This document shows positions 15,097-37,003 of a stretch of 41,677 nucleotides of DNA, in pieces (the first letter of the stretch is position 1; each line of letters begins with the position of its first letter). The stretch lies in NCBI GenBank assembly GCA_026391695.1, contig JAPLDP010000087.1:1-41677 (forward strand), given 5' to 3'. Source of the DNA: Bacteroidota bacterium. Its GTDB lineage: Bacteria > Bacteroidota > Bacteroidia > Bacteroidales > JAGONC01. A program made the position numbers and the translations under genes. The notes beneath the pieces are model-generated. The model was given only the letters and a program-made list of their open reading frames with translations, did no database searches and was not told the origin of the DNA.

Positions 15097-16032
15097 ATGA
15101 CTGAATCCATTAAAATATTGCACTATCACGAAATACTCGATTTTTTACATAAAACCGACAGACGGGTTGTCTTCGAGAAGACCAATGTTATCCCTGATGA
15201 TCGTGACCTTTATGACAGCCTGAATAAGTATGTCTGCTATGAAGATATCGGGTGCAAATCGGTTCTTGGAATAGATATTTTTCAGTACACCTCCTATGGT
15301 GAATTTGAACAGACTTTGCTTCCATTCCTTTTTAAACTTCTTTTCAAAACGGCCATCAAAGTATGCCTGGAAAACCATCCTTACCTGTTTCAGAAATATA
15401 CACAAAAAAGTATTGAAAATAGTTTCATAAGTACGGGTGACGGGGGCTTTCTGATCTTTGACACCCCATTGCATTCACTTGTGTTTGCCAGTAATTTCGC
15501 TGTGACATTGCGGGTTTTTAACTCCTATCATTACTACCCCAAATTACGAAAAACCCTTGGCGAAGTGAATCTGCGATATGCCATCACCTATGATAAGATT
15601 TATACCTTTGAAAATAATTATTATGGAAGGGCCATGATCAATAATGCCAGGATTCTCATAAAGGACAACTTAAACCGGTGTCTGATCGATGAAAATGTAT
15701 ATTCGTGGTTCACTATAAATATTGATGGAATAGAGAACCTTCAGGTCCTCACAATTCATGACATCGCCAATATCCATGAATTCAAGCATGCTTATGATAC
15801 GGCAATCCTTGAGCAGCAGCACGATGAGATATTTGAAGATAAGCCATCGCGTGATTATGGAATCATTAATTCCGACATCCTGCATGTTGGGAAGATCAAA
15901 TCAAAGGAGACTGAGATGAACATCTATAACCTGCATTTACAGATAGCACTGAAACTTTATAATGATGATGACAGGACTCAGACGCGTTTTATTACAGCCA
16001 GTCTTGGGAATTTGAATACTGCAGGAATATAA
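15097..16032 (+). CDS. Class III nucleotidyl cyclase-homology protein
   Basis: A 311-residue protein without signal peptide or membrane segment. Residues about 54-200 resemble the class III adenylate/guanylate cyclase fold: GIDIFQYTSY carries a candidate first metal-binding Asp (Asp60), and STGDGGFLIF the second (Asp115). The later NNYYGRAMINNARIL aligns with the GDxVNxAARL motif, keeping the arginine (Arg185) but with Ile where the transition-state Asn is expected. It may therefore be catalytically weak or a nucleotide-binding regulator. The C-terminal 110 residues are unassigned. A second protein of this class lies at 18641-19288. The assignment rests on motif reading only. Confidence 0.6.
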   Translation: MTESIKILHYHEILDFLHKTDRRVVFEKTNVIPDDRDLYDSLNKYVCYEDIGCKSVLGIDIFQYTSYGEFEQTLLPFLFKLLFKTAIKVCLENHPYLFQKYTQKSIENSFISTGDGGFLIFDTPLHSLVFASNFAVTLRVFNSYHYYPKLRKTLGEVNLRYAITYDKIYTFENNYYGRAMINNARILIKDNLNRCLIDENVYSWFTINIDGIENLQVLTIHDIANIHEFKHAYDTAILEQQHDEIFEDKPSRDYGIINSDILHVGKIKSKETEMNIYNLHLQIALKLYNDDDRTQTRFITASLGNLNTAGI

Positions 16033-18640: not shown

Positions 18641-19288
18641 TCATACATCGATCGTCCTGAATCCTGTGACATGAGGCACACCTTTGAAATCTTCAACATA
18701 TTTTTCCGATACCTTTTCAAGGCAGCCTGTTTTCGCAGGAAGCTTCAATTCCAGCAAGGCATTTTGAACCTGTGAGTAATATTTTTCACTCATCACGATC
18801 CTGTTTGCCTTTGCTTTCAGCATCAGGCGGGCTGAGAGGTCAACATCAATGCCATAATAGTCGTTGTAGTTTTCAAGGAAGGTGATGTTATAAACCTCGG
18901 TACAATAATGAATGGCCACCTTGGCTTGCAGGAAAAGATTATCGACCGGAAAATATTTAATATTATACAATGTGGCATAAATCTCCTCAAGGAGAGCATA
19001 ATAATTATTGCAGTTCTTGCGTATTTTGAGATCCTCATCGGGCACAAACAGCATCATCTCATCACCGATACCTTTTACAATATGGCTGGGAAATTCATTA
19101 AGAATGGAGATGAAGTTGAAGGTGTTATTCAGCCGTTTGCCCCAATCGCGGAGATCGGTCTGGTATTTAATATGTGTTGAATCGACAATATCGATAAATA
19201 TGCAGGTTCCCGGGCATTTGGGGATAGTTTCAAGATATTTTTCAATTTCTGTTGACCTTGGATCTCTATAGTGAATAAAGAATGTCAT
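18641..19288 (-). CDS. Adenylate/guanylate cyclase-like domain protein
   Basis: A 215-residue soluble protein that is essentially one class III cyclase-homology domain. Metal-site aspartates are Asp33 in CIFIDIVDSTH and Asp76 in VKGIGDEMMLF. The YYGIDVDLSARLMLKA segment corresponds to GDxVNxAARL, with Asp in place of the transition-state Asn and the Arg kept (Arg154). It may make a cyclic nucleotide or act only as a nucleotide-binding partner. ATG 19288 is preferred; a TTG at 19315 would add nine hydrophobic residues. It follows the STAS gene by 66 bases on the same strand, so I infer a single unit: HATPase, STAS, cyclase. Confidence 0.75.
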   Translation of the reverse strand: MTFFIHYRDPRSTEIEKYLETIPKCPGTCIFIDIVDSTHIKYQTDLRDWGKRLNNTFNFISILNEFPSHIVKGIGDEMMLFVPDEDLKIRKNCNNYYALLEEIYATLYNIKYFPVDNLFLQAKVAIHYCTEVYNITFLENYNDYYGIDVDLSARLMLKAKANRIVMSEKYYSQVQNALLELKLPAKTGCLEKVSEKYVEDFKGVPHVTGFRTIDV

Positions 19289-19354
19289 AAATACAAAATC
19301 GATGAAAGATATCAATCACATGACTCGACCAGGCAGATGCAGTATCAGGATGAT

Positions 19355-19693
19355 TTATGAGGAAAAGCTGCCAAGAGCTTCAGCCCTGCCGGGAAAAATT
19401 TCGAAAATACTTGTAAAACCAGATATTTCAAATATTTCGGCAATATTTTCCTGCAGACTGCATAACACAAACTTACCTTTAGCTGAAGCGATTTTCTTAA
19501 GTGCCATCAGCAATATCCTTAAACCTGAGCTGCTCACATAATCGAGCTTTGAACAATCGATAAGGATGTATACCACATTGTTATCTATCAGGTCTATAAT
19601 TTTTTTCTCAAGAACATTATAATTCGTGGTATCCAGCCGACCTACCAACTCAAGGATGGTCACATTATCATTTTTTGAATCGAGTATTTCCAT
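19355..19693 (-). CDS. STAS-domain anti-sigma factor antagonist
   Basis: A 112-residue SpoIIAA/RsbV-like STAS protein. The phosphorylation loop reads LDYVSSSGLRILL; by alignment to the DSSG loop of SpoIIAA/RsbV, Ser55 is the predicted phosphoacceptor. Such proteins bind and release an HATPase kinase of the RsbW type depending on phosphorylation. The probable kinase partner is encoded ten bases upstream, and a SpoIIE-type phosphatase lies 6 kb away on the other strand. Its final target is unknown. Confidence 0.9.
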   Translation of the reverse strand: MEILDSKNDNVTILELVGRLDTTNYNVLEKKIIDLIDNNVVYILIDCSKLDYVSSSGLRILLMALKKIASAKGKFVLCSLQENIAEIFEISGFTSIFEIFPGRAEALGSFSS

Positions 19694-19703
19694 ATAGCAA
19701 GAT

Positions 19704-20117
19704 TTATATTTTCTTAATTAAAGTAAGCACATTTTTCTTTTCATATCTCTGATATTCAACATTATCCACCAGTTTCCTCACAAAATGGATGCCCAGTCCG
19801 CCGATCTTTCTTTCTTCAATGGACTTATTCAGGTCATCAGGTTTATTTGAGAGTAAAGGATTGAATTCCACACCATCATCTTCAATCCTTATTCTGAGTA
19901 TATTATTATCAAGGTTAAATCCGATGGTTATCTTATGTTTATCCTTATCCCTGTACGCGTAAAATATAATGTTTGTTATCAATTCCTCAATAACAAGGTT
20001 AATGTTGAAAATGATTTTCGCTGACCAGTCCCATACTTCACCAAGAATTTCCAGTTCGCTTGTGATACGGCTGAGTTCTGACAATTCGTTGGTGATAATA
20101 ATCTCTTTCTCTTTCAT
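19704..20117 (-). CDS. RsbW/SpoIIAB-like HATPase (anti-sigma factor kinase)
   Basis: A 137-residue HATPase_c_2 protein. The N box is NLVIEELITNIIFYAY, the G1 box RIEDDGVEFNPL, and the G2 region KIGGLGIHFVRKLVDNVEY. These proteins phosphorylate STAS antagonists on serine and, when free, sequester a partner such as a sigma factor. ATG 20117 gives MKEKEIIITNELSEL; a TTG three codons earlier is less likely. It heads the minus-strand trio. No sigma-B-like gene is present nearby, so the sequestered partner may not be a sigma factor. Confidence 0.9.
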   Translation of the reverse strand: MKEKEIIITNELSELSRITSELEILGEVWDWSAKIIFNINLVIEELITNIIFYAYRDKDKHKITIGFNLDNNILRIRIEDDGVEFNPLLSNKPDDLNKSIEERKIGGLGIHFVRKLVDNVEYQRYEKKNVLTLIKKI

Positions 20118-20348
20118 TACAGGCAAATTTCAAAAGCCTGACATACTTTATCACTGTAAAAATAGAAAAATAATCCATTGTGCAAATCATAAATCTGATA
20201 AAGCAATTATTTATTGCACAATTATTCATTTAAAATTAAAGGATTCTTAACTTCCTGTTGTACCAATTATGGAAATAACTAAATTAGGGCAAATTTTTGC
20301 TGAAGAAATCTGTGAAAGCAGCTCATTATAACAGATGGGTACTATTTT

Positions 20349-22057: not shown

Positions 22058-22087
22058 TCATAAATTGTCATGAATGGTCATTCATAG
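22058..22087. repeat. Degenerate 10-bp tandem repeat at the WD40/kinase junction
   Basis: Three units with the pattern TCATnAATnG (TCATAAATTG, TCATGAATGG, TCATTCATAG), perhaps preceded by a weaker fourth. It covers an ATG at 22074 in frame with the kinase gene, which is why the later ATG at 22098 is preferred. Confidence 0.5.
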
Positions 22088-22097
22088 TTTACAGGTA

Positions 22098-25000
22098 ATG
22101 AGATACGGGAAAAAGAGAAGCTTTATTGTTACGCTGTTCATCATTCTGTTGTCGTTGACGGTTCATGGACAGGTCATAGTGAACAGTGAGCAGGGTTATC
22201 CCTTTATCAGGTATTTCAGTGCGGACGAGTATAATGCCCACACGCAGAATTTCGATATAGTTCAGGATAACCGTGGTGTAATCTATGTGGCGAATTTTGC
22301 GGGTGTCATGGAGTACGATGGTGAAAACTGGCGACTTATTCCGACAAAACAGATTACAAAAGTCACTTCGCTGGCTGTGGATACCTCCGGTAAGATATAT
22401 GTGGGCGCCAGAGGAGAGATCGGTTATCTGGAACCTGCCAGGAATGGCAGCATGGAATTTATCAGTTTAAATAAACTCATTAATCCTGATCAGCTGAAAT
22501 TTCTTGATGTTATCAAAACGTTCGCTTCACCTGAGGGTATCTATTTTATAACCAGTCGAACGATATTTCTCCTGAAGGATAATGAAATTAAGACCTGGCA
22601 GATGGATAAAGAGATCCATTCTACATTTTATATTGATGGTGCTTTATACTATCAGCTGGTCAGGGGAGGCCTCTATTTCATCAAAAATGGTAAAACAACA
22701 GGTGTGAGCGGAATTGAGAATTTACCGGAGGCTACGCTCATCAATGCACTCTTGTCATATTATGAAGGGAGTTTATTGCTTGGTGCGGCTGACCAGGGAT
22801 TGTATCTCCTTGAAAATAATACGCTGAAAGACTTTCCGTCAGAAGCTGATCCCATTTTTAAAGAGAGCCAGATCACATGCGGTATAAGACTGAATGACGG
22901 TTGTATAGCATTTGGAACGGCAAGAAAGGGCATTGTCCTTCTTTATCCGGATGGCAGGATCAAAAAGGTCATCGACAAAAATGCAGGACTTCCGGATGAC
23001 AATGTCCAAAATCTGTTCATCGATAAAGAGAATACTCTCTGGTCGGCATTGAATAACGGGCTGGCACATCTGGACATTCCCTCTCCATTTTCCTTCTTTT
23101 CTGAATCGGCTGGTATCAGGGGCGGTGTCATAGATATCCTTCGGCAAAATAAAATTTTTTACGCAGCAACATACCAGGGTCTGTATTACTATGATGGGAA
23201 ACAGGATGTCTTCACATCTGTACCAGGTATAACCACGGCATGCTGGTCGATAGTACCTGTTGATAATGACTTGCTGGCAGCGACCAGCAAAGGTATTTTT
23301 CTTGTTCATGATTTTACAGCACGTTTAATTTCGCAAGGATTCTTCCTGAAGCTATGCAGATCCAGGTGGAAACCCTCAGTGATTTTTGCCGGCGAAACGG
23401 AAGGACTGCACATTCTGGAATTCAAAAACGGAATATGGACCGATAAAGGCAATGTCCCGGGAATAGACATGGAAATCAGGGAGATTGTCGAAGATGGAAT
23501 ACAAAATCTCTGGTTAAACAGTCCATTGGAAAATATAGTGCGATACGATCCTCTAACAGGAAAAACAGAAAAGTACGACACCTTATCCGGGCTTCCTGCC
23601 AGCTCAGGTAACCATCTCAACGAGCTGGATCCTGCGCCTGTAGTGAGCACACGGAATGGTCTGGTCAGTTATGACCCGGAATCAGACATTTTCAGATCGT
23701 TTATTCTTTTCCCGGGAGATAGCCTGTATAGCACGATCTGGCTCATGGATTTAGTAGAAAACAGCCATAGGGATCTTTGGACAACAACAGGTGACGAAAA
23801 GAATATCACTTTCCATTTAAGGAAGGGAGAAAAAGACTTCCGTCATCTTTTTCAGCCATTTCTCCCAGTAGCTGATTTTGTCACATGGGTAATTTATCCT
23901 GAAACTGACGGCATTTGCTGGTTTGGCGGACCACAAGGTCTTCTTCGTTATGATCCGTCAGTGGCCAGAGACTATAACCGGTCATACCTTACATTTATAA
24001 GAAAGACTGTCATTAAAAATGATTCAGTGATATTTGATGGTGCCTATTCAAACCCCAGCAGGCAAGTCATTGATGATCAGCCTGCTGATTTTATTCCACG
24101 GATAGATTATTCCGCTAATGCCATACGTTTTACATTTGCATCAGCAAGTTACCCTGTCAGAGGGAAAAATCAATACCAGTATTACCTGCAGGGTTTTGAT
24201 AAAACCTGGTCAGAATGGACATCCGAACTCCAGAAGGAATACACCAACCTTCGAAAAGGAGACTATGCTTTCCATGTACGATCAATAAACGTCTATGGAA
24301 AAGCAGGTGAAGAAGCCCGTTATTCCTTCTTTATCAGAACACCCTGGTTCCTGAAATGGTGGGGTTTTATGCTTTACCTGATCGTGCTCTGTGGCTTGAT
24401 TTACATTATCGTTGTGCTGCGTTCACGGCAGCTGATAAAAGAAAAGCAGCGGCTTGAAACAATTGTTAAAGAGAGGACCGATGATCTGCAAAAAACCCTG
24501 GATGATTTAAAGGAGACACAGGATCAGCTCATTCAATCTGAAAAACTGGCATCGTTGGGAAAACTGACTGCAGGCATCGCTCATGAGATCCAGAATCCAC
24601 TCAATTTTGTCAATAATTTCTCTGCACTTTCCATCGATCTTGCTGATGAGCTTAAATCAAGTCTCGAAAAGGAAAAGAATAATATCAGAGCTGAAACATT
24701 TGCCGATATGGGAGAAGTGATCGGCATGATCGAAGGGAATGTTCAGAAGATTAATGAGCATGGAAAAAGAGCCGACAGGATTGTCAAAGGTATGTTACAG
24801 CATTCCCGAGGTAAGTCCGGCGAATTCCAGGTGACCGACCTGAACCAGCTCATTGGAGAGTATGTTAATTTGGCATACCATGGCACCAGAGCCGAAAACA
24901 AAGAATTTAACACAACCTTTAAACTGGATTTCGATCCGCAGGTTGGTAGGGTAAAGGTTGTGCCTCAGGATTTCTCGCGGGTTATCCTGAATGTCGTGAA

Positions 25001-25316
25001 CAACTCTTGTTACGCAGTCTTCGAGAAGAGTCAAAAAATTCAGACCGGATATTCTCCGGAGATCAGCATCAGCACCAAACGCATCGATATGAACATTGTC
25101 ATAAAAATTAAAGATAATGGCACCGGTATCCCACAATCGGTCATCACTAAAATTTTTGAACCCTTTTTCACAACCAAACCAACGGGTAAAGGTACCGGTC
25201 TTGGATTGTCAATGAGTTATGATATCATCTCATCAATACACAGTGGAAAATTGGAGGTAAACTCGCAGGAAGGGGAATCGACAGAGTTTGTTATCACGAT
25301 TCCCGATAGGAGCTGA
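22098..25316 (+). CDS. Propeller-type sensor histidine kinase
   Basis: A 1072-residue membrane sensor. A signal peptide ([20 protein letters not shown]) leads an exported half built of two-component regulator propeller repeats (for example [19 protein letters not shown]). A Y_Y_Y-type beta domain follows ([18 protein letters not shown]), then one membrane helix at about 752-775 and a coiled coil. The kinase has H box [14 protein letters not shown] with phosphorylatable His829, N box [12 protein letters not shown]1 DNGTGIP and [16 protein letters not shown]. Unlike the hybrid kinases of polysaccharide loci it lacks REC and AraC domains; the receiver is in the next gene. ATG 22098 is chosen because the signal peptide follows directly. 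Confidence 0.93.
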
Positions 25317-25404
25317 TAATGGGTTTGGATGAAGGAAAAGGTTGAAAGAAAATTATCTGTAATATAAGAGAAAAAATAAATATTAACAATTGAATCATAA
25401 GAAA

Positions 25405-26571
25405 ATGGATACTGTAAAAATCATGATCGTCGATGATGAAGCGGATATGGAGCTTCTTATGCGGCAAAAGTTCAGAACGATGCTCAGAGAAAAGAAATAC
25501 GACTTCGTCTTTGCAATAAACGGACTTGAAGCCCTGTCGAAGCTTCTGGAGCATCCCGATATTTCGATTATTCTTTCCGACATCAACATGCCGGAAATGG
25601 ATGGTCTGACTCTTCTTGCAAGACTTAATGAACTCAAGAATCCTGCCTTGAAAACGGTTATTGTTTCAGCTTACGGGGATATGGACAATATCCGGACAGC
25701 CATGAACCGGGGGGCGTTTGATTTTATCACCAAACCCATCAACTTCGAGGATCTTGAGATCACCATCAATAAGACCATTGAGCATATACACATCCTTCAG
25801 CAGGCAAATAAAGAACATGAGCAGCTTGTATCACTTCAGCATGACCTGGATATTGCCAAGGAGATCCAGCAAGCAATTCTTCCCAAGGTATTCCCGCCTT
25901 TCCCCAACAGGAAGGATTTTGACCTGTTTGCTTCGATGAATGCAGCAAAGTCAGTCGGCGGGGATTTCTATGACTTCTTTCTGATTGATGATGACCACCT
26001 TGGGGTTGTCATTGCTGATGTATCCGATAAGGGTATACCTGCAGCGATTTACATGGCTGTCAGCAGGACGATAATCAGGGCGGCCGCCATTAAAGGCCTT
26101 GCACCTGAAGATTGTCTTGAGTACTCCAACCTGCTCCTGTGCAAAGAAAGTGTGAACAGCATGTTTGTGACTGTCTTTTATGGCATTTTGAATACCAGGA
26201 CGGGGGAATTCCGCTATTCCAATGCAGGACATAATCCACCCTATATCGTGTCACCAAACGGTACAGTGAGAGGTATCGAGCTTACCCACGACATTGTTAT
26301 GGGCGTGATTGACGGCATTAAATTCAAACCAAAGAGTGTCAGCGTAAATAAGGGAGATGCGTTGTATCTCTATACCGATGGCGTCACAGAGGCGATGAGT
26401 ACCAGGAATGAGCTTTATGGCGAGGAACGGCTTGAAGGTGTGCTTAAAACAATTGGTAATGTTTCGCCTGAAGAGATTATCCAAAGAGTCATGCAAGATC
26501 TGAGTACATATACAACCGGTGCTGTGCAGTCGGACGACATCACCATGCTTGCGGTGAGGTATCATCCGTGA
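25405..26571 (+). CDS. Response regulator with SpoIIE/RsbU-type PP2C phosphatase
   Basis: A 388-residue REC-PPM fusion. The receiver (1-125) has acidic residues Asp10/Asp11 in IMIVDDEAD, phosphoacceptor Asp59 in ILSDINMPEMDG and the Lys of FITKP. A helical linker (QHDLDIAKEIQQAILP) typical of this fusion precedes the phosphatase (about 165-388), with metal motifs GGDFYDFF, ADVSDKGIPAA, NAGHNPP, LYTDGVTEA and QSDDITMLAV. The expected substrate is a serine-phosphorylated STAS protein, of which two are encoded close by. It should be switched on by the kinase upstream (gap 88 bases). ATG 25405 is preferred over TTG 25390. Confidence 0.94.
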   Translation: MDTVKIMIVDDEADMELLMRQKFRTMLREKKYDFVFAINGLEALSKLLEHPDISIILSDINMPEMDGLTLLARLNELKNPALKTVIVSAYGDMDNIRTAMNRGAFDFITKPINFEDLEITINKTIEHIHILQQANKEHEQLVSLQHDLDIAKEIQQAILPKVFPPFPNRKDFDLFASMNAAKSVGGDFYDFFLIDDDHLGVVIADVSDKGIPAAIYMAVSRTIIRAAAIKGLAPEDCLEYSNLLLCKESVNSMFVTVFYGILNTRTGEFRYSNAGHNPPYIVSPNGTVRGIELTHDIVMGVIDGIKFKPKSVSVNKGDALYLYTDGVTEAMSTRNELYGEERLEGVLKTIGNVSPEEIIQRVMQDLSTYTTGAVQSDDITMLAVRYHP

Positions 26572-26636: not shown

Positions 26637-28646
26637 ATGATCAGGAGAATAAAACCATTGCTCAAAGGTATTGTTTTGATTTTTATGATTGCCGCCTTGC
26701 TGATATTCTCTGACTGGAGAAACAGGACGGCCCTTAAATCTAAGGGGAGTCTCCGGCAAAAAGCAACCGGCACGACTGCTGAGATTGGAAGATCCTACAG
26801 CATCGGTATTGCTTATTTTGCGCCGGAAGAATCGTTCGATAACCTGTTGACAGGTTTGTTTTATGGTTTAGCTGATCTGGGATTTGTTAAAGACAGCAAC
26901 CTCAATGTCATCTTATCCCATGCAAATGGTGAAATTTCCAATATTCCGAGTGTATTGCAAAATCTGGATAACCAGCCAATCGATCTGTTGATTGTAACCT
27001 CTACGCCATGTTTGACAGCTGCGCTGACAATCGTGAAAAACAAACCCATTGTTTTCACTTACGTTTATGATCCGATAGCCGCTGGTGCGGGTACAAATTA
27101 CAATGAGCACCGTCCTAATGTAACTGGAGTCGGCTCTTTTCCTCCAATAGAAAAAACGATAGAGCTAATTACCACCCTGATACCTGGTATCCGCTCTGCA
27201 GGTACGATTTACAACTCGTCGGAAGCCAATTCCCGAAAGGCTGTCAGTGTCGGCAGGGAGCTCTTTGCCCAAAAAAACATAGCGCTCGAAGAGATCACGG
27301 TTGTTAATACCAATGAGGTTCTTCAGGCTATCCAGGTCCTTGTGACAAAAGACATCCAGGTCCTATGGATAACAGGGGATAACACTGCTATTCAGGCTTT
27401 GGATGGAATCATCAAAACTGCTGATAAAAGCAAGATACCTGTCATTATCAATGATTATGAGTATGTCAGCCATGGTGCTCTTGCTGCTGCAGGAATAGGA
27501 TGGTACGGCACAGGCTATCATTCAGCCGGGGTTGTGGCCAAAGTGCTGAATGGGGCAAATGTTGACACCATACCTCTTGAAAATTATGTGGAGGAACAGA
27601 TCGTCATCAACTTTGAAAAGGCAAAAATCCTGGGTATCCTGATACCTAAAGAGCTGAAAAAAGTCAGCATGGCCTCAGATAAGTTAGACATGGCATCCGG
27701 TAAAAATGACCGTAACTCCTTCATGAGAAAGCGAAATCGTGATCATAAGTTCAGATTCGTTATAGTTCAGTACAATGATGCTCCCATATCAGAGCTTACA
27801 CTTCAGGGCCTTATCTATGGCTTGGAAGAATCAGGGCTTTTGGAGGGCAAAGATTTTGATCTTCAAATTAAAAATGCACAGGGCGACATTACAACCTTGA
27901 ATTCCATAATCAATCAGGTGGCATCCGATAAATATGATATCGTGTTCATCACATCCACACCCACTTTACAGTGTGCTATAAAGAAGATCAAGGACCAGGA
28001 TATTGTATTTACTACAGTAGCTGATCCCATCACTGCCGGTGCGGGAAAAAGTTTCTCACAGCATTTGCCGAATGTAACCGGTATTTCGACAATGGGCGAT
28101 TATGAAGGCATGGCTAAACTTCTAAAAACCTTGCTTCCTTCGGCTCACAGAATCGGGACCTTGTATTCACCGGGCGAAGCCAATTCCGTAAATAATCTGG
28201 AGACATTCAGAAAATACACAAAACAGGAAGGTCTTGAGGTCATTGCCACTCCGGTAAATTCAAGCTCTGAAATCACCGATGCTGCTTTATCGATGTGCTC
28301 ACAGAGAATTGATGTGATTTGTCAGATCATTGACAACCTTACATCTGCATCATTCCCCGGAATCAACCGGGTTGCCAGGAAAACAAAGATACCGCTGTTT
28401 GGGTTTGTAAGTGAACAGGTCGAAGATGGAGCCATCCTGGCTGTTTCACGAGATTATATTCAGGCTGGAAAAGATGCTGCAAGGCTTGCTTTGAGAATCC
28501 TCCAGGGAGAACAAGCCTCAAATCTGCCTTTTGAGTTTGTCAGCAAAACTAATCTTATTATAAATCTTGAAGCAGCCGATTACTATGGAATTTCCATCCC
28601 GGATGCAGTGATCAGTAAAGCCGATAAAATCATAAAAAGAGAATAA
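26637..28646 (+). CDS. ABC transporter substrate-binding protein with two tandem binding domains
   Basis: A 669-residue protein anchored by an N-terminal membrane helix (residues about 10-25) with no lipobox. Two copies of the ABC_sub_bind (TrpX-like) domain follow, at about 54-340 and 372-660. The repeat is obvious: DLLIVTSTPCLTAAL with DIVFITSTPTLQCAI, DPIAAGAGTNYNEHRPNVTG with DPITAGAGKSFSQHLPNVTG, and SSEANS with PGEANS. Family members usually carry one such domain of about 300 residues. Known relatives bind aromatic amino acids or other small ligands; the ligand here is unknown. It is followed after three bases by the STAS gene, then the matching permease and ATPase. Confidence 0.9.
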   Translation: MIRRIKPLLKGIVLIFMIAALLIFSDWRNRTALKSKGSLRQKATGTTAEIGRSYSIGIAYFAPEESFDNLLTGLFYGLADLGFVKDSNLNVILSHANGEISNIPSVLQNLDNQPIDLLIVTSTPCLTAALTIVKNKPIVFTYVYDPIAAGAGTNYNEHRPNVTGVGSFPPIEKTIELITTLIPGIRSAGTIYNSSEANSRKAVSVGRELFAQKNIALEEITVVNTNEVLQAIQVLVTKDIQVLWITGDNTAIQALDGIIKTADKSKIPVIINDYEYVSHGALAAAGIGWYGTGYHSAGVVAKVLNGANVDTIPLENYVEEQIVINFEKAKILGILIPKELKKVSMASDKLDMASGKNDRNSFMRKRNRDHKFRFVIVQYNDAPISELTLQGLIYGLEESGLLEGKDFDLQIKNAQGDITTLNSIINQVASDKYDIVFITSTPTLQCAIKKIKDQDIVFTTVADPITAGAGKSFSQHLPNVTGISTMGDYEGMAKLLKTLLPSAHRIGTLYSPGEANSVNNLETFRKYTKQEGLEVIATPVNSSSEITDAALSMCSQRIDVICQIIDNLTSASFPGINRVARKTKIPLFGFVSEQVEDGAILAVSRDYIQAGKDAARLALRILQGEQASNLPFEFVSKTNLIINLEAADYYGISIPDAVISKADKIIKRE

Positions 28647-28649
28647 GCG

Positions 28650-29906
28650 ATGAGTGAAATCCTTGAGATATCCAAATCTTTTGATCATCAAATACTCGTT
28701 CTTAACCTGAGAGGGCGCATAGATGCCTACTGGTCATCGCAACTGGGAAGCTACCTTGATGACAGCATCCGTGAAGGACATTATGATATAAGGCTGAATA
28801 TGAAGGAGATCAGCTATATCAGCTCAGCGGGCATAAGGGTGTTACTGAACTATTTTAAACAGCTTCATGACATCAATGGCTCGTTAACACTAAATGAGAT
28901 TTCAGATAATGTAAGGACCGTTCTGGAGATGGTCGGACTTAGGAGCCTGTTGTCCGGTGAAGATATTGAAAAACCAGCAGAAGTCAAAGCGTCAGTAAAG
29001 GAAGAGATCCTGGATAATGTACATTTTACTCAAATTCCGTTGAATGAATCCTCCAGGTTGCATTGCCGGTTTACCGGGAATCCTGATCACCTCAACAGCG
29101 GCAGCTTTACAGGTGCACTCTTGGACAATGAACGTTTTAATTCAGGCAGCTTTGGAATCGGTCTGGGTGCATTTGGTAATAATTTTGACGATTGCCGGGA
29201 GCGTTTCGGTGAATTCATCGGACTGGGAGATGTGGTCTGCTACCTGCCTGCCAACAGAACCAGTCTCCCTGATTATCTGATAAGGAGCGGACAACTTATC
29301 CCTGAAATTAAAAGCCTTTATTCGATCATCTTTTCAGGTTCTTTCAATCATACTATTCGTTATGATATGCAGGGTGTCAGAAAAAGTATTCCTTGCAGCA
29401 GACTTTTTACCAACTGCATGAAACTGACCAATTTTAACAGCGCTGGTATTGTGATGTTAGCGGAGACCACCGGCCTGGTAGGTGCTTCACTCACCTCGTC
29501 GCCGGTCCGAGACCCTTCAGGTGCAGCCCTGTTTCAGTTCCCGGAGGTTCGTGATCATTTGCATATCACCACCGAGCCCGAATATGACAAGATGCTGACA
29601 GCGACAGTCGGTATCCTTCATAATGCGCCGGAAGAAGCCATGAAATCCTTTCTCCGGCCAATTTCTTCCGGATCAGAATTGTGGGGACACTTTCACACCG
29701 CTGTCTTTTCATATCATCCCCTGAGAAAAGAAAACATCGAATTGAACAGCGCGATTGTATCTTTTTTTGAAAATGACAAGATCCAGCATATTCTCCACTT
29801 GATTAATGATGAAAGAGACCTTGTAGGAATCGGGGATAGCGGATTTAAGAGCGGAACGGTATGGATTGGGGAAATAGAAAAAACAGAGATCATTCAACAT
29901 GCATAA
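28650..29906 (+). CDS. STAS-domain protein with unrecognised C-terminal domain
   Basis: Residues 1-105 are a STAS antagonist domain with loop ISYISSAGIRVLL; Ser59 is the predicted phosphoacceptor. Residues about 120-418 form a domain I do not recognise, with distinctive segments FGIGLGAFGNNFDDCRERFGEF, DVVCYLPANRTSLPDYLIRSG and LWGHFHTAVFSYHPL. No membrane helix is seen. It starts three bases after the substrate-binding gene and ends 39 bases ahead of the permease, so it is made together with an ABC importer. I infer it links partner-switch phosphorylation to the transporter or to a surface-independent output. Confidence 0.8.
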   Translation: MSEILEISKSFDHQILVLNLRGRIDAYWSSQLGSYLDDSIREGHYDIRLNMKEISYISSAGIRVLLNYFKQLHDINGSLTLNEISDNVRTVLEMVGLRSLLSGEDIEKPAEVKASVKEEILDNVHFTQIPLNESSRLHCRFTGNPDHLNSGSFTGALLDNERFNSGSFGIGLGAFGNNFDDCRERFGEFIGLGDVVCYLPANRTSLPDYLIRSGQLIPEIKSLYSIIFSGSFNHTIRYDMQGVRKSIPCSRLFTNCMKLTNFNSAGIVMLAETTGLVGASLTSSPVRDPSGAALFQFPEVRDHLHITTEPEYDKMLTATVGILHNAPEEAMKSFLRPISSGSELWGHFHTAVFSYHPLRKENIELNSAIVSFFENDKIQHILHLINDERDLVGIGDSGFKSGTVWIGEIEKTEIIQHA

Positions 29907-29945: not shown

Positions 29946-30893
29946 ATGACGCTGCTCATTGGTTCCATAACTATTGGACTTATACTATCCTTGCTGGCAC
30001 TTGGAGTCTTCATCAGTTTCAGAATTTACAATTTTCCGGATATTACCGCTGAAGGTTCGATAACCCTTGGAGCTGCAATTGCCGCATCATTGATCGTTGC
30101 CGGGCTCAATCCGGTTCTGGCAACCCTGCTGGCTTTCTGCGGAGGATTCATCGCAGGATCAATAACAGGGATTTTGCATACACGTTTCAATATCAACAAT
30201 CTTTTAGCCGGCATTCTCGTCATGACAGCACTCTACTCGGTTAATCTGCATGTGATGGGAAAAAGCAATGTTCCCTTGTTGTCAGAGAAATCATTGATAA
30301 CCTATTTTGAAAGTGTGCAATCTGTTTTTGCCCCGGGCAGAGAAACAGTTAATCTCCTTGGCTGGACAGTGCCTGAAAAAGACCTTTTTGTCCTCATTTT
30401 TATTTTTATGATTATAATAGCCATTACTGTCTTATTATACTGGTTCTTCAGGACCGACATGGGTACGGCGATGCGTGCAACCGGCAATAATCAGCAGATG
30501 ATCAGGGCATTGGGTGTAAACACCAAAAATATGGTTATTCTGGGCATTGCCATTTCCAATGGATTGATAGGCTTATCAGGTGCGCTGCTGGCTCAATATC
30601 AGGGCTTTGCCGATGTTCAGATGGGCATCGGCATGGTGGTATGGGGATTGGCCAGTGTCATCATCGGAGAGGCACTGATAACAGAGAAAAACCTTGGTTT
30701 TGTCATTGCCGGAGCCGTGATGGGATCTGTACTTTTCCGGCTGCTTGTTGCCATCGCCCTGCGATGGGGCATGAATCCCAATGATCTTAAGCTGATCACT
30801 GCGTTGTTCGTTTTTATCGCCCTCATTCTCCCCACATTGATGCAGAAGATTAACAGGAAAAACAAAATAGCCATTGCTGATTACAGGAAATAA
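29946..30893 (+). CDS. ABC transporter permease, TrpY-like
   Basis: A 315-residue membrane protein of the BPD_transp_2 family with about eight to nine helices. RIYNFPDITAEGSITLGAAI and NNLLAGILVMTALYSVNLHVMG are hallmarks of permeases that work with ABC_sub_bind proteins. The cytoplasmic loop TDMGTAMRATGNNQQMIRALGVN is the ATPase contact segment. It follows the STAS gene and is followed by its ATPase; only one permease is present, so a homodimer is expected. Confidence 0.92.
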   Translation: MTLLIGSITIGLILSLLALGVFISFRIYNFPDITAEGSITLGAAIAASLIVAGLNPVLATLLAFCGGFIAGSITGILHTRFNINNLLAGILVMTALYSVNLHVMGKSNVPLLSEKSLITYFESVQSVFAPGRETVNLLGWTVPEKDLFVLIFIFMIIIAITVLLYWFFRTDMGTAMRATGNNQQMIRALGVNTKNMVILGIAISNGLIGLSGALLAQYQGFADVQMGIGMVVWGLASVIIGEALITEKNLGFVIAGAVMGSVLFRLLVAIALRWGMNPNDLKLITALFVFIALILPTLMQKINRKNKIAIADYRK

Positions 30894-30906
30894 ACAGAGA
30901 TATACA

Positions 30907-31719
30907 ATGCTGAAAATCGAGAATCTTTATAAAACATTTAATCCCGGAACCGTTCATGAGGTTCGCGCTCTGGTCGGGATAAACTGTGAGATCAAAGAGG
31001 GAAGCTTCGTTGTCCTGCTCGGCACTAATGGTTCCGGTAAATCAACACTGCTTAATGCTGTTGCGGGGTCATTCTATCCTGATACCGGAAGTATTCTTCT
31101 CGATGGCAGGGACATTACCAATTATCCAGAACATAAACGTGCCAGTTTCATCGGACGTGTGTTTCAGAATCCATTCACCGGGACAGCTCCCGATATGAGT
31201 ATAGCGGAGAATCTTGCACTGGCGTCGAGAAGAGGGATGCGACGAGGTCTTGGTATGGCATTGCATTCCAAACGGCTTGATGCCTTCAGCAAAAGAATTA
31301 AAATGCTGAATATGGGCCTTGAAGAAAGATTGGATAATCCAATAGGTAAACTCTCCGGAGGACAACGACAGGCACTTACTTTAATCATGGCCACATGGCA
31401 TAAGCCCAGGCTTCTATTGCTTGATGAACATACGGCTGCATTGGATCCCAAGACAGGCGGTAAGGTTGTTCAACTCACCGGGGAGGTGATCTCAAAAGAT
31501 CATCTTACGACGCTCATGGTCACCCATTCAATGCAACAGGCTGTGAATCTCGGCGACCGCATACTGATGATGCATAACGGCAAAATCGTTTATGACTTCA
31601 GCGGTGAGGATAAACGGCGTTTGAATGTTAAGGATCTGTTGAGTCTTTTTGAAGACATACGGCGAAGAGAGCAAATTGACGCCACCATGGCTGAGATGAT
31701 TAAGCAAATATATATTTAG
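30907..31719 (+). CDS. ABC transporter ATP-binding protein, TrpZ-like
   Basis: A 270-residue ABC ATPase. Walker A GTNGSGKSTLLNA, Q-loop VFQNPFTGTAPDMSIAENL, signature GKLSGGQRQALTL, Walker B LLLLDEHTAALDP (His replaces the usual Pro after Glu, common in this subfamily) and switch histidine VTHSM are intact. ATG 30907 is the natural start (MLKIENLYKTF); a TTG at 30874 inside the permease gene is unlikely. It closes the operon of substrate-binding protein, STAS protein and permease. Confidence 0.93.
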   Translation: MLKIENLYKTFNPGTVHEVRALVGINCEIKEGSFVVLLGTNGSGKSTLLNAVAGSFYPDTGSILLDGRDITNYPEHKRASFIGRVFQNPFTGTAPDMSIAENLALASRRGMRRGLGMALHSKRLDAFSKRIKMLNMGLEERLDNPIGKLSGGQRQALTLIMATWHKPRLLLLDEHTAALDPKTGGKVVQLTGEVISKDHLTTLMVTHSMQQAVNLGDRILMMHNGKIVYDFSGEDKRRLNVKDLLSLFEDIRRREQIDATMAEMIKQIYI

Positions 31720-31836: not shown

Positions 31837-32436
31837 ATGGATTACGAAAAAGCCAAAGATTTTATTATAAACAAGCTCTCGAACGGGCTCTCACCCGATC
31901 TCCGTTATCATAACGTAGATCATACACTCGATGTCCTGCAATCTGTTGAGAAGCTATGTGAAATGGAGAATGTGAACGGACATGACCTGATCCTGCTGAA
32001 TACGGCCGCTTTATTCCATGATTCGGGAATGCTCGTGCAGTATGAAGAACATGAAGAAGCATCTACACGACTAACCCGTAAACTCCTGCCGGAAATGGGC
32101 TATACCGCTGAAGATATTAAAATCATCAATAAAATGATTCTGACTACACGGCTGCCGCAGAGTGCACAAACCCACCTCGAAAAAATCCTTTGTGATGCTG
32201 ATCTGGATTATCTGGGCCGCGACGATTTTTTCATGATCGCCCACCAATTGAAATACGAATGGAATAAGCTGAATATTAATAAAGTATCGTTGAAACGATG
32301 GTATGAACTTCAAAGCGATTTTCTTGAAACACATACTTATTACACCGATTCTGCCGTTATATTGCGTCAGAAAAAAAAGAATCAGAACCTGTCAGAAGTC
32401 AAAGAACTCTTAATAAAACACGAACATTGCATATGA
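31837..32436 (+). CDS. HD-domain phosphohydrolase
   Basis: A 199-residue metal-dependent HD protein. Ligand motifs are RYHNVDHTLDVL (His), AALFHDSGM (the HD pair) and DADLDYLG (distal Asp), all present, so it should be active. Members of this group hydrolyse phosphoester bonds, some in cyclic nucleotides; the substrate is not visible from sequence. Its stop overlaps the next gene's start (ATGA at 32433), implying translational coupling to the universal stress protein. Confidence 0.85.
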   Translation: MDYEKAKDFIINKLSNGLSPDLRYHNVDHTLDVLQSVEKLCEMENVNGHDLILLNTAALFHDSGMLVQYEEHEEASTRLTRKLLPEMGYTAEDIKIINKMILTTRLPQSAQTHLEKILCDADLDYLGRDDFFMIAHQLKYEWNKLNINKVSLKRWYELQSDFLETHTYYTDSAVILRQKKKNQNLSEVKELLIKHEHCI

Positions 32437-33290
32437 ATAATAAATCATCCGGTAAAATTATATTAATCCCTACTGATCTTTCAGAGGTATGCAAAAATGC
32501 CATTCAGCATGGTGCCGAAATTGCCCAGTATCTTGGTTACAGTGTATATTTGTTGCATGTTGTTAATAAAGACACACGCGATCATTTAAAAAGTCAAAAC
32601 CATGGCCTTGAAGACCTTGTTGATGAGCTCAGAAAAACTGCTGAATCACTTGAAAAGAAATTTAAGATTAAAGCTGATTCCATAACTCGTATCGGCAGCA
32701 TCTTTACGAGAATACCGGAAGTCGCCAGGGAGTTAAATGCCAACCTGGTTGTTCTGGGTACACATGGAAAAGTCGGATTTCAGAAGCTTGTTGGCAGTTT
32801 CGCTCTCAAGATCATTCTCAAATCACCATGTCCTGTCATTGTCGTCCAGAAACGACCTTTTGGCAAGGGCTATAAAAATATCGTCTTCCCGATTTCCGAT
32901 TTCATGGAAGACAGGCAGAAGGTTAAATGGGCCATATATCTGGCCAGGACTTTCAATTCGACTATTCATCTGTTTCAGAAATATGCTCATGATCCCGGTT
33001 CCTCAAGCCGTATCAATATAGTCACACATCATATCAAGGAAGCTTTCGATGCGAACGGGATATATTACCGGATCGTTAACGCCAATGAACGCGGGGTATT
33101 TGCTGACCAGGTGATGGAATATGCTGTAAGCAATATGGCCGATCTGGTCATTATCATGACCGATACGGAGGTCCCTGATCCCCGTTTCAAGCTTGCACCG
33201 TGGGATGAGACGATGATATTCAATAAATCCCAGATTCCTGTCATGTGCCTTAATCCCCTTGCGCTGAGTAACGTTTATTTTGGGCTTTAA
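32433..33290 (+). CDS. Double-domain universal stress protein
   Basis: A 285-residue protein with two UspA folds. The first (about 5-145) begins GKIILIPTDLSEVCKNAIQHG and keeps the nucleotide-binding loop GTHGKVGFQKLVGS in its Bacteroidota form. The second (about 150-283) starts YKNIVFPISDFMED and lacks a clear ATP loop, so only the first is expected to bind ATP. ATG 32433 overlaps the HD gene's stop by four bases. A stress-related cytoplasmic role is known for the family; the specific role is not. Confidence 0.9.
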   Translation: MNNKSSGKIILIPTDLSEVCKNAIQHGAEIAQYLGYSVYLLHVVNKDTRDHLKSQNHGLEDLVDELRKTAESLEKKFKIKADSITRIGSIFTRIPEVARELNANLVVLGTHGKVGFQKLVGSFALKIILKSPCPVIVVQKRPFGKGYKNIVFPISDFMEDRQKVKWAIYLARTFNSTIHLFQKYAHDPGSSSRINIVTHHIKEAFDANGIYYRIVNANERGVFADQVMEYAVSNMADLVIIMTDTEVPDPRFKLAPWDETMIFNKSQIPVMCLNPLALSNVYFGL

Positions 33291-33323
33291 TGCATCATGG
33301 CTGGCCTGGGGCTCTGTCAAGGC

Positions 33324-34874
33324 ATGATAAAATATATTAAAACTTCCTGGGAAAGGCATCCGCTGGCCGTCATCATCTGGACAGCCATTATACTTCGTTT
33401 GATTTCCGTAGTTTTTGCCAGGGGCTTTGGCATGCACGACGACCATTTCCTTGTCGTCGAACCACCGCAATCATGGGTCGAAGGCTGGGATTATAACAAC
33501 TACCTGCCCGACAGTGCCGGACACAACCACCCTACCGGCCATAGCTTTTTCTATAATGGGCTCCAGTACATTACTTTCCTTATCCTCAATTTTCTTCATG
33601 TACAGGATCCTCAGATTAAAATGCTTTTCGTCAGGTTTCTGCATGCCGCTTTCTCACTGATAACGGTATATCTTGGCTTTAAGATTACAAAAAAAATTCA
33701 TACTGTAGCTTCTGCAAAACTTGTGGGAATATTACTTGCTGCATACTGGTTCATGCCCTGGATTAGTGTCCGTAACCTTGTTGAAGTGGTTTGTATCCCA
33801 TTCCTCATATCTGGAACATGGATCATGATCACGGCTGATGACAGGAACCGGCGGCTGTGGTCATATCTCTTTGCAGGATTACTTTTTGGACTGGCCTTTT
33901 CGGTTCGATTCCAGACAATATTCTTCCCTGTAGGAGCTGGTCTTGCATTACTCATACAGAAAAAATGGCGTGAAGCGGTCATTTTAGCCGCCGGCTCTGT
34001 CACGGGTATTTCGCTGACACAGGGTTTGATCGATTTTGCCATTTGGGGCAGGCCTTTTGCCGAGCTGACAGAATATGTGCGTTACAATATCATTGCGTCG
34101 CACGATTACTTTGTAATGCCTTGGTATAATTATCTTCTCGTTATTCTTGCCTTGTTAATACCACCTGTAAGCTTTTTCTTTTTCTTTGGATTTTTCAGAA
34201 AAATAAAACGACATCTGCTCCTTTTCCTTCCTGCCTTGTTATTTCTTGTATTCCATTCCTATTTCCCGAATAAACAGGAAAGGTTTATCCTTCCTGCGAT
34301 ACCATATATCATCATTTTAGGGGTGGTTGGCTGGAATGATTTTATAGCCCGGTCAAAATTCTGGCTAAAAAACATCAAGTTGTTAAAGGCCTGCTGGATT
34401 TTTTTCTGGGTTGTCAATCTTATACTTTTACCTATCGTTTCGACCATGTATTCAAAGAAAGCCAGGGTGGAGTCGATGTACTATCTGTACCGTTATAAAA
34501 ATATTGAATTTATACTTCTTGATGATACATTCAGACCGGATTTTAAAATCCCTCCGGAATTTTACAGTGGACAGAATATGGAAATTTACAGTCTTTGTGA
34601 GGGGAATCCGTTTGATGCGCTGAAGGAACGGTTACAGAATGACGGAGAGGCGAAATATCCCCGTTTTGTGTTATTTTTTGACGACCGTGACCTCGAAAAA
34701 CGGGTTGAAAGAGTAAAAACAATATTACCACACATCACTTATGAAACCACGATAAAACCCGGATTTGTTGACTGGGTGCTTTATAAGCTCAACCCTTACA
34801 ATGCAAATCAGACCATTTTTATCTACCGGAACGTGGATTTTTTCCCGGAGAAAATCGGGAAAGGTAAAAAATAA
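33324..34874 (+). CDS. GT-C membrane glycosyltransferase, Alg9/PIG-B-like
   Basis: A 516-residue integral membrane protein with about ten helices. Near the N-terminus, GMHDDHFLVVEP has the acidic residues found in the first periplasmic loop of GT-C transferases, which use lipid-linked sugars. FPNKQERFILPAIPY matches the HKExRF-type motif of the GT22 mannosyltransferases. The final 130 residues form a soluble domain. Donor and acceptor are unknown. ATG 33324 (MIKYIKTSWERHP) is preferred; ATG 33297 would add nine residues and sit six bases after the previous stop. Confidence 0.75.
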   Translation: MIKYIKTSWERHPLAVIIWTAIILRLISVVFARGFGMHDDHFLVVEPPQSWVEGWDYNNYLPDSAGHNHPTGHSFFYNGLQYITFLILNFLHVQDPQIKMLFVRFLHAAFSLITVYLGFKITKKIHTVASAKLVGILLAAYWFMPWISVRNLVEVVCIPFLISGTWIMITADDRNRRLWSYLFAGLLFGLAFSVRFQTIFFPVGAGLALLIQKKWREAVILAAGSVTGISLTQGLIDFAIWGRPFAELTEYVRYNIIASHDYFVMPWYNYLLVILALLIPPVSFFFFFGFFRKIKRHLLLFLPALLFLVFHSYFPNKQERFILPAIPYIIILGVVGWNDFIARSKFWLKNIKLLKACWIFFWVVNLILLPIVSTMYSKKARVESMYYLYRYKNIEFILLDDTFRPDFKIPPEFYSGQNMEIYSLCEGNPFDALKERLQNDGEAKYPRFVLFFDDRDLEKRVERVKTILPHITYETTIKPGFVDWVLYKLNPYNANQTIFIYRNVDFFPEKIGKGKK

Positions 34875-34897
34875 TCCTCCTTTCAAACCATTGCTGA

Positions 34898-37003
<2,106 letters not shown>

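What the first reader, a model, noticed from the sequence alone, without database searches (positions are those of the whole stretch)
28650..29906. STAS protein with an unrecognised 300-residue domain encoded inside an ABC importer operon
The gene lies between the substrate-binding protein (3-base gap) and the permease. The N-terminal STAS domain keeps the predicted phosphoserine. The C-terminal domain has strong family-like segments (GAFGNNFDDCRERFGEF, GHFHTAVFSYHPL) but matches nothing I know. A phosphorylation-controlled part of an ABC transporter would be new.
Basis: partly seen in the sequence, partly recalled or inferred. Interest (0 to 1): 0.6.

Follow-up and report, generated by a model that had tools for sequence, protein, structure and literature searches.

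The report
STAS–decarboxylase-fold protein in importer operons
A gene found inside one group of bacterial nutrient-import operons encodes a phosphorylation-switch domain fused to a domain with the fold of metal-dependent decarboxylases, which suggests, but does not show, an importer controlled by both protein phosphorylation and a small molecule.

Summary
Window 28650-29906 encodes 418 residues: a STAS domain (11-101) and a C-terminal domain that the sequence libraries tried do not recognise. Its fold is known, however: the AlphaFold2 model (pLDDT 93) matches acetolactate decarboxylase (ALDC, Z 18.6) and human PTD012 (Z 16.1); unrelated rows start at Z 3.2. Over 36 distinct loci Ser58/Ser59 of the STAS switch never vary, nor do Glu188, His347, His349 and His383, candidates for an ALDC-like metal site, nor Asp208. 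Glu188 aligns with the ALDC Glu; which His match which ALDC ligands is unsettled. The gene lies among ABC importer genes in 36 of 36 loci and diverges in step with the permease (r 0.935). The only SpoIIE-type phosphatase found in the genome is encoded just upstream; 15 of 28 carrier genomes have one within 10 kb, 0.46 expected, but 22 of 36 loci as read show none. Best reading: an accessory subunit of a TrpXYZ-like importer, switched by phosphorylation and carrying a small-acid-binding, probably metal-containing domain. Docking, phosphorylation and metal binding are inferred. New variant of a known kind.

The parts
28650..29906 (+). STAS + acetolactate-decarboxylase/PTD012-fold protein (418 aa; called STASx here)
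28680..28952 (+). STAS domain, residues 11-101; expected phosphoserine Ser59 (codon 28824-28826), preceded by invariant Ser58
   Evidence: PF01740; RsbV and SpoIIAA alignments; S58 and S59 35 of 35
29058..29903 (+). ALDC/PTD012-fold domain, residues 137-418 in the ALDC match (114-418 in the PTD012 match); invariant Glu188, Asp208, His347, His349, His383
   Evidence: fold; conservation
26637..28646 (+). Substrate-binding protein with two ABC_sub_bind (TrpX-like) domains, 669 aa
   Evidence: PF04392, 2 stretches, E 1.8e-115; 3lkv, 6hni, 3lft
29946..30893 (+). ABC permease, BPD_transp_2
   Evidence: PF02653 E 2.3e-30
30874..31719 (+). ABC ATPase
   Evidence: PF00005 E 5.1e-29
25390..26571 (+). 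Response regulator with SpoIIE-type PP2C phosphatase domain; the only SpoIIE-family match found in the genome
   Evidence: PF00072 + PF07228
22074..25316 (+). Sensor histidine kinase with Y_Y_Y and Reg_prop matches
   Evidence: PF02518, PF07495, PF07494
19704..20126 (-). RsbW-like (HATPase_c_2) candidate serine kinase
   Evidence: PF13581 E 4.8e-24
19355..19693 (-). Single-domain STAS protein, 112 aa
   Evidence: PF01740 E 1.3e-21

Best explanation
STASx is most likely a dedicated cytoplasmic accessory subunit of a TrpXYZ-like ABC importer. Its STAS domain would dock on the importer, as MlaB does in its transporter, and be switched at Ser59 by an RsbW-type kinase and a response-regulator PP2C phosphatase. 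Its C-terminal domain, a far-diverged branch of the acetolactate decarboxylase/PTD012 fold with an invariant Glu and three invariant His, would hold a metal and bind (perhaps convert) a small carboxylic acid related to the imported substrate, so that import follows both the two-component signal and an internal metabolite. Shown by computation: domain structure, predicted fold, invariant residues, operon membership, co-divergence, linkage to the phosphatase. Inferred: docking, phosphorylation, metal and ligand binding, direction of control.
For: Linkage: 36 of 36 distinct loci have STASx among importer genes. A permease, alone or fused to the SBP, follows directly in 35 (L080 is cut by its contig end); an SBP precedes directly (30) or is fused to the permease (5) in 35 (L086 is cut); an ATPase was found in 32. 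STASx distances correlate with permease distances (0.935) as permease with ATPase do (0.939); 500 label shuffles reached at most 0.36 and 0.40. In 99 relatives the 10 genomes with a permease match at E < 1e-100 are the 10 with STASx. Switch: Ser58 and Ser59 invariant in 35 of 35; the sole SpoIIE match of the genome lies in the same run of genes; 15 of 28 carrier genomes have a SpoIIE gene within 10 kb, 0.46 expected; in L082 and L085 the phosphatase gene abuts STASx and no RsbW or small STAS gene was found within about 8 kb. Domain: ALDC Z 18.6, 2.8 A over 205 residues; PTD012 Z 16.1, 4.2 A over 239. ALDC-family proteins keep G-E, HxH and GH in 16 of 16; STASx keeps G-E, HxH and a later H in 35 of 35. 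Five joint alignments all put ALDC Gly-Glu on Gly187-Glu188.
Against: 22 of 36 loci, and 15 of the 27 with at least 6 kb read upstream, show no PP2C gene in the stretch read; 26 of 36 show no RsbW gene (found by BLAST with proteins of the window, L016 and L017, so far relatives can be missed). In the window the small STAS protein beside the kinase is the more obvious phosphatase substrate. SpoIIE and HATPase_c_2 matches in 28 of 28 carriers have no matched control in carrier-free genomes of the order, and HATPase_c_2 rang in 12 of 14 named control genomes, so that count says little. Profile comparison with ALDC is not significant (hhalign P 0.3 and 0.15). The His register is unsettled: all five joint alignments and the local alignment put His383 on the second His of the ALDC HxH, and one search leaves the third ALDC His unmatched; my preferred register rests on the order of predicted strands only. 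The ALDC Arg is not kept (its neighbour falls on Ser280 in 4 of 5 alignments, so the Arg falls on Ala279); no Arg of the domain is fully invariant (Arg389 33 of 35). STAS residue 23 is Arg where RsbV has Glu.
Confidence: 0.45

Rival explanations
1. STASx is chiefly an enzyme: the C-terminal domain is an active metal-dependent decarboxylase or hydrolase that processes the imported compound, and the STAS domain only tethers it to the importer.
For: Glu188, Asp208 and three His invariant in 35 of 35 over sequences 20-48% identical to the window's in A1 and A4; ALDC and, by a 2025 commentary, PTD012 are decarboxylases of similar keto acids (PMC12435205, passages). The window genome has no PF03306 match.
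Against: The Arg of canonical ALDC is not kept and the His register is unsettled. An invariant Ser-Ser switch would be unneeded for a tether. No pathway gene was seen linked in most loci, though neighbours were searched mainly by BLAST with window proteins.
Confidence: 0.2
2. The importer is the sensor: transport state or the STASx ligand sets how much unphosphorylated STASx is free to bind the RsbW-type kinase, and the output is a partner-switch pathway, not transport.
For: RsbW-like and small STAS genes lie near in 10 and 9 of 36 loci; the STAS domain is closest to RsbV/SpoIIAA-type proteins.
Against: No sigma-factor target was noticed in the linked genes; many loci as read contain only importer genes of the set searched for.
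Confidence: 0.15
3. STASx is an MlaB-like assembly subunit: it stabilises the ATPase/permease and is not phosphorylated; nearby phosphatase genes serve the small STAS protein.
For: Strict importer linkage but patchy phosphatase linkage; MlaB is required for assembly of its transporter (PMC5016091, passages).
Against: Invariant Ser-Ser pair; the sole phosphatase match of the genome is in this gene run; L082 and L085 have the phosphatase but no small STAS gene found nearby. It does not explain the second domain.
Confidence: 0.15

Closest known systems
MlaB of the MlaFEDB lipid transporter
   Same: Cytoplasmic STAS protein that is a working part of an ABC transporter; a conserved Thr at the SpoIIAA serine position, mutation of which abolishes ATPase activity; phosphorylation proposed (PMC5016091, passages).
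   Different: MlaB is STAS only, with Thr52. STASx has Ser, a second domain, a BPD_transp_2 permease and a TrpX-like SBP, and in part of the loci partner-switch genes nearby.
Acetolactate decarboxylase (PF03306)
   Same: Fold (Z 18.6); Gly-Glu aligned in all of five joint alignments; HxH and a further invariant His.
   Different: No significant sequence or profile match; fused to STAS; His register unsettled and Arg not kept.
PTD012/C11orf54 (DUF1907, PF08925)
   Same: Fold (Z 16.1); Zn held by three conserved His, structure related to ALDC (PMC12435205, passages).
   Different: No Pfam match; in that commentary stand-alone or fused to dehydrogenases, not to STAS.
SypA/SypE and RsbV/RsbW/RsbU partner switches
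   Same: A STAS serine controlled by a kinase and a PP2C phosphatase, in SypE joined with a REC domain; SypA acts below transcription on biofilm formation (PMC10120452, passages).
   Different: Single-domain STAS proteins, not known as transporter subunits (recalled).
TrpXYZ / CD0873-type aromatic amino acid importers
   Same: SBP family PF04392 with permease and ATPase (TrpX and CD0873 seen in a search listing).
   Different: The L100 operon, with a far permease relative, has no STASx. Substrate here unknown.

Membership tests
STAS, RsbV/SpoIIAA type | STAS domain by profile | tested here: met
   PF01740 53.3 bits (cut-off 22.6), TIGR00377 62.5 bits (cut-off 53.45)
STAS, RsbV/SpoIIAA type | Phosphorylatable Ser two residues before the conserved Gly | tested here: met
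   Ser59/Gly61, 35 of 35
STAS, RsbV/SpoIIAA type | Phosphorylated by a cognate HATPase_c_2 kinase | not testable with these tools
   Candidate genes in 28 of 28 carriers, but also in 12 of 14 control genomes; no assay
SpoIIAA equivalog TIGR02886 | Score over curated cut-off | tested here: not met
   46.6 against 114.75 bits
Acetolactate decarboxylase PF03306 | Profile match | tested here: not met
   No PF03306 match listed at E up to 10 in 10 members; hhalign P 0.3 and 0.15
Acetolactate decarboxylase PF03306 | ALDC fold | tested here: met
   Predicted model, Z 18.6 / 2.8 A / 205 residues
Acetolactate decarboxylase PF03306 | Gly-Glu motif | tested here: met
   Gly187-Glu188 invariant and on ALDC Gly-Glu in 5 of 5 joint alignments
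Acetolactate decarboxylase PF03306 | Three metal His | tested here: inconclusive
   Three invariant His, but 5 of 5 joint alignments leave the third ALDC His unmatched; no coordinates to measure
Acetolactate decarboxylase PF03306 | Conserved Arg before Ser-Val-Pro of canonical members | tested here: not met
   Falls on Ala279 in 4 of 5 joint alignments; also absent in the 8 divergent ALDC-family rows of 16
Acetolactate decarboxylase PF03306 | Decarboxylase activity | not testable with these tools
   needs enzyme assay
PTD012 / DUF1907 PF08925 | Profile match | tested here: not met
   No PF08925 match listed at E up to 10 in 10 members
PTD012 / DUF1907 PF08925 | Fold | tested here: met
   Z 16.1 / 4.2 A / 239 residues
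MlaB (NF033618) | Equivalog score over cut-off | tested here: not met
   16.9 against 90 bits
MlaB (NF033618) | Physical subunit of the ABC transporter | not testable with these tools
   operon linkage 36 of 36 only
TrpX (NF041285), for the SBP | Equivalog score over cut-off | tested here: not met
   367.6 against 390 bits over two domains; PF04392 met

The most novel reading that the evidence does not exclude
A class of ABC importers, found mainly in genomes titled Bacteroidetes or Bacteroidales and once in one titled Victivallis, has an obligate further cytoplasmic subunit that joins a serine phosphorylation switch with a metal-dependent acid-binding domain, so that a two-component phosphatase and an internal metabolite jointly gate import: the first partner-switched ABC importer.
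Probability: 0.33. Interest if true: 0.8.

Novelty: new variant of a known kind. Interest (0 to 1): 0.6.

Why it matters
STAS domains recur in transporters, but whether the switch residue is really phosphorylated in an ABC system is open; for MlaB it was only proposed (PMC5016091, passages). Here the switch serine, a second ligand-type domain and in many loci the phosphatase are encoded together, a compact system in which the question can be tested. It also adds a STAS-fused branch to the acetolactate decarboxylase/PTD012 fold, seemingly recruited into transport control.

Tried and rejected
Rejected: 'no known fold' (searches give a clear match); an SpoIIE-like phosphatase fold for the C-terminal domain, considered from the sequence (no such row among those shown); a phage or defence link (no hit in PHROGs or PADLOC; none by tblastn in the phage and plasmid collections; in the viral fold library no row with E under 0.001, though a DUF296 row, the PPC relative, stands third with probability 0.82).

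Led nowhere: genome-contig scan with the single protein (0 confirmed); PF08925 in 148 genomes (0, but none of 14 controls rang either, so inconclusive); PDB profile searches with the domain (best E 0.36; none); hhalign against ALDC (not significant; global mode aligned only 17 columns; the local alignment puts Gly-Glu on Gly-Glu, that puts the His383 segment on the ALDC HxH segment).

Set aside as chance: two Pfam rows (a viral polymerase domain and DUF7078, E about 0.09, one member each) and the VIA rows with Z 3.2 or less.

A5 holds 14 of 16 ALDC-family proteins (L058, a near-duplicate, and L065, a fusion, left out); the count uses all 16. In one search the ALDC ORF was picked with a preference for one containing HxH, but 15 of 16 loci offered one candidate only, and in the other the longest was taken, so this did not make the motif. 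A4 holds 26 of 28 sequences; truncated L049 and L055 were left out there and but kept.

It supports the Glu equivalence and the Arg loss but speaks against my His register, so I lowered the best explanation from 0.50 to 0.45 and the novel case from 0.35 to 0.33, raised the assembly-only rival from 0.13 to 0.15, and removed the statement that all the invariant residues are the expected metal-site set (Asp208 is not).

Literature: no paper held has both 'STAS domain' and 'acetolactate decarboxylase' or two of 'ALDC', 'Ptd012', 'AF0104'. Other searches were seen as listings only, some capped; none listed looked like an account of this gene. Most subscription papers, and bioRxiv preprints, are not in that library. 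The C11orf54 paper itself was not held; I used passages of the commentary.

Full report
OBSERVATION. The ORF 28650-29906 is real: 418 codons from ATG, 3 bases after the substrate-binding protein and 39 before the permease. The run of genes on the + strand is histidine kinase (22074-25316), response regulator with SpoIIE-type PP2C phosphatase (25390-26571), SBP with two ABC_sub_bind domains (26637-28646), the STAS protein ('STASx'), permease (29946-30893), ATPase (30874-31719). On the - strand upstream lie a single-domain STAS protein (19355-19693) and an RsbW-like ATPase/kinase (19704-20126).

STAS DOMAIN. PF01740 matches with E 2.6e-14 and TIGR00377 passes its cut-off. In the HMMER alignments to RsbV and SpoIIAA the position two before the conserved Gly, the phosphoserine of those proteins (recalled; for the STAS protein SypA the site is Ser56, PMC10120452, passages), is Ser59; Ser58 replaces their Asp. 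Both serines are invariant in 35 of 35 sequences that cover them.

C-TERMINAL DOMAIN. By sequence it gave no significant match in Pfam, NCBIfam, PHROGs, PADLOC or the PDB. AlphaFold2 on ten homologues gave pLDDT 85.7 for the whole protein; the domain alone, with 26 homologues, gave pLDDT 93.1 and pTM 0.92. Foldseek ranks acetolactate decarboxylases first (E 2.9e-7) with PTD012 sixth. VIA-align gives ALDC Z 18.6 (2.8 A, 205 residues), PTD012 Z 16.1 (4.2 A, 239 residues), then PPC/AF0104-type proteins and one Vibrio protein at 8.5-10.8; the next row is at 3.2. The ALDC, PTD012 and AF0104 folds are grouped together in SCOP (recalled). According to a 2025 commentary, PTD012/C11orf54 is a beta-ketogulonate decarboxylase with Zn on three conserved His and a structure related to ALDC (PMC12435205, passages read).

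POSSIBLE METAL SITE. In 16 of 16 ALDC-family proteins fetched from the phylum the fully invariant residues are Gly58, Gly65-Glu66, Gly179, His195-x-His197 and Gly207-His208 (numbering of L056). In 36 STASx sequences the invariant residues of the C-terminal domain are Gly171, Gly187-Glu188, Pro200, Asp208, Gly275, His347, His349, His383 and Gly402 (35 of 35 each, Gly275 36 of 36; one truncated sequence lacks letters at each of the others). Five joint alignments of 34 STASx domains with the 16 ALDC-family proteins all put Gly65-Glu66 on Gly187-Glu188; four of five put Gly58 on Gly171; three of five put Gly179 on Gly321 (conserved in 35 of 36). The histidines are not settled. By the order of predicted strands I would pair His347/His349 with the ALDC HxH and His383 with the third His, a helix (residues 251-261 of the domain model) being inserted between. 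But all five alignments pair His383 with the second His of HxH and leave the third unmatched, and a non-significant hhalign alignment also puts the His383 segment on the HxH segment. The Arg of canonical ALDC falls on Ala279 in four of five, though the 8 divergent ALDC-family rows of 16 lack it too. Profile-profile comparison is not significant. Kinship therefore rests on fold and the Gly-Glu motif, and a metal site is likely but unproven.

DISTRIBUTION AND LINKAGE. STASx was found in 10 of 99 relatives, 4 of 395 phylum genomes and 25 of 393 order genomes, each including the window's own. The second genome-contig scan gave 13 loci: 12 titled Bacteroidetes or Bacteroidales and one titled Victivallis vadensis (L098), another phylum if its label is right. 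After dropping 5 duplicates, 36 distinct loci remain; in the aligned sets STASx or its domain is 20-48% identical to the window's. In all 36 it lies among importer genes: a permease, or in five distant loci a permease-SBP fusion, follows directly in 35 of 36, and an SBP precedes directly or is fused in 35 of 36, the exceptions being contig ends; an ATPase was found in 32 of 36, missing at contig ends (L015, L080) or not found in what was read (L081, L090). STASx distances follow permease distances as closely as ATPase distances do (0.935 against 0.939). In the 99 relatives the permease at E < 1e-100 occurs in the same 10 genomes as STASx. Weaker permease matches occur in three others (G079, G080, G093) and a second one in G056; the one looked at, G093, is an ABC_sub_bind operon without STASx.

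PARTNER-SWITCH CONTEXT. The window phosphatase is the only SpoIIE-family match at E 0.001 or better in its 3.6-Mb, 97% complete assembly. That genome has four STAS matches and three HATPase_c_2 matches over the cut-off. All 28 carrier genomes have SpoIIE and HATPase_c_2 matches. HATPase_c_2 also rang in 12 of 14 named control genomes, SpoIIE in 5 of 14; no count was made in carrier-free genomes of the order, so the 28 of 28 lacks a matched control. Position says more: in 15 of 28 a SpoIIE gene is within 10 kb of STASx, 0.46 expected if copies were placed at random, and 200,000 draws never exceeded 5; of 8 genomes with a single copy, 6 have it there (positions tallied by hand). In L082 and L085 the order is kinase, REC-PP2C, STASx, permease-SBP, ATPase, and no other STAS or RsbW gene was found by BLAST in about 8 kb either side, although these two genomes have 3 and 4 SpoIIE matches in all. 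Against this, 22 of 36 loci as read show no phosphatase nearby.

MECHANISM. The most economical reading is an importer subunit with two inputs. The STAS half would sit on the ABC complex, as MlaB does (needed for assembly; T52A abolishes ATPase activity; PMC5016091, passages), and be switched by phosphorylation. The other half would bind a small acid. The SBP family includes aromatic amino acid binders (TrpX; CD0873 by recall and search listing), so the imported compound may be an aromatic amino acid, but the substrate here is unknown. Cytosolic ligand domains that gate ABC importers exist in MetNI, ModBC and OpuA (recalled). Enzyme, reverse-signalling and assembly-only readings are kept as rivals.

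VERDICT. It is a new variant of a known kind (STAS accessory subunit, ALDC-fold domain, partner switch), in a combination for which the library searches gave no account (listings only).

Noticed in passing
26637-28646: The SBP carries two ABC_sub_bind domains in one polypeptide; other loci have shorter (about 340 aa) or larger versions.
   Followed up: partly
L028, L029, L030, L082, L085: Permease and SBP are fused into one 945-1247 aa protein in five distant loci (Pfam checked for L082 only).
   Followed up: partly
18641-19315 (-) and 15097-16032 (+): A class III cyclase-like protein (PF00211 E 2.6e-5) lies beside the small STAS/RsbW pair; 15097-16032 has no Pfam match at E 0.01.
   Followed up: no
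28716-28724 (residues 23-25): STAS residue 23 is Arg (35 of 35) where RsbV has Glu; the small STAS of the window also has Arg there, so both may suit the same changed kinase surface.
   Followed up: partly
L098: A complete SBP-STASx-permease-ATPase module in a genome titled Victivallis vadensis, outside Bacteroidota if the label is right.
   Followed up: partly
L016, L017, L022, L073-L076, L086: An NMT1/THI5-like binding protein beside a sensor kinase or membrane PP2C recurs near the module (by BLAST; Pfam checked for L016 only).
   Followed up: no
31837-37003: HD-domain, glycosyltransferase-like and LigA genes downstream (names by recall, no family search) keep their order in L018 and L019.
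   Followed up: no
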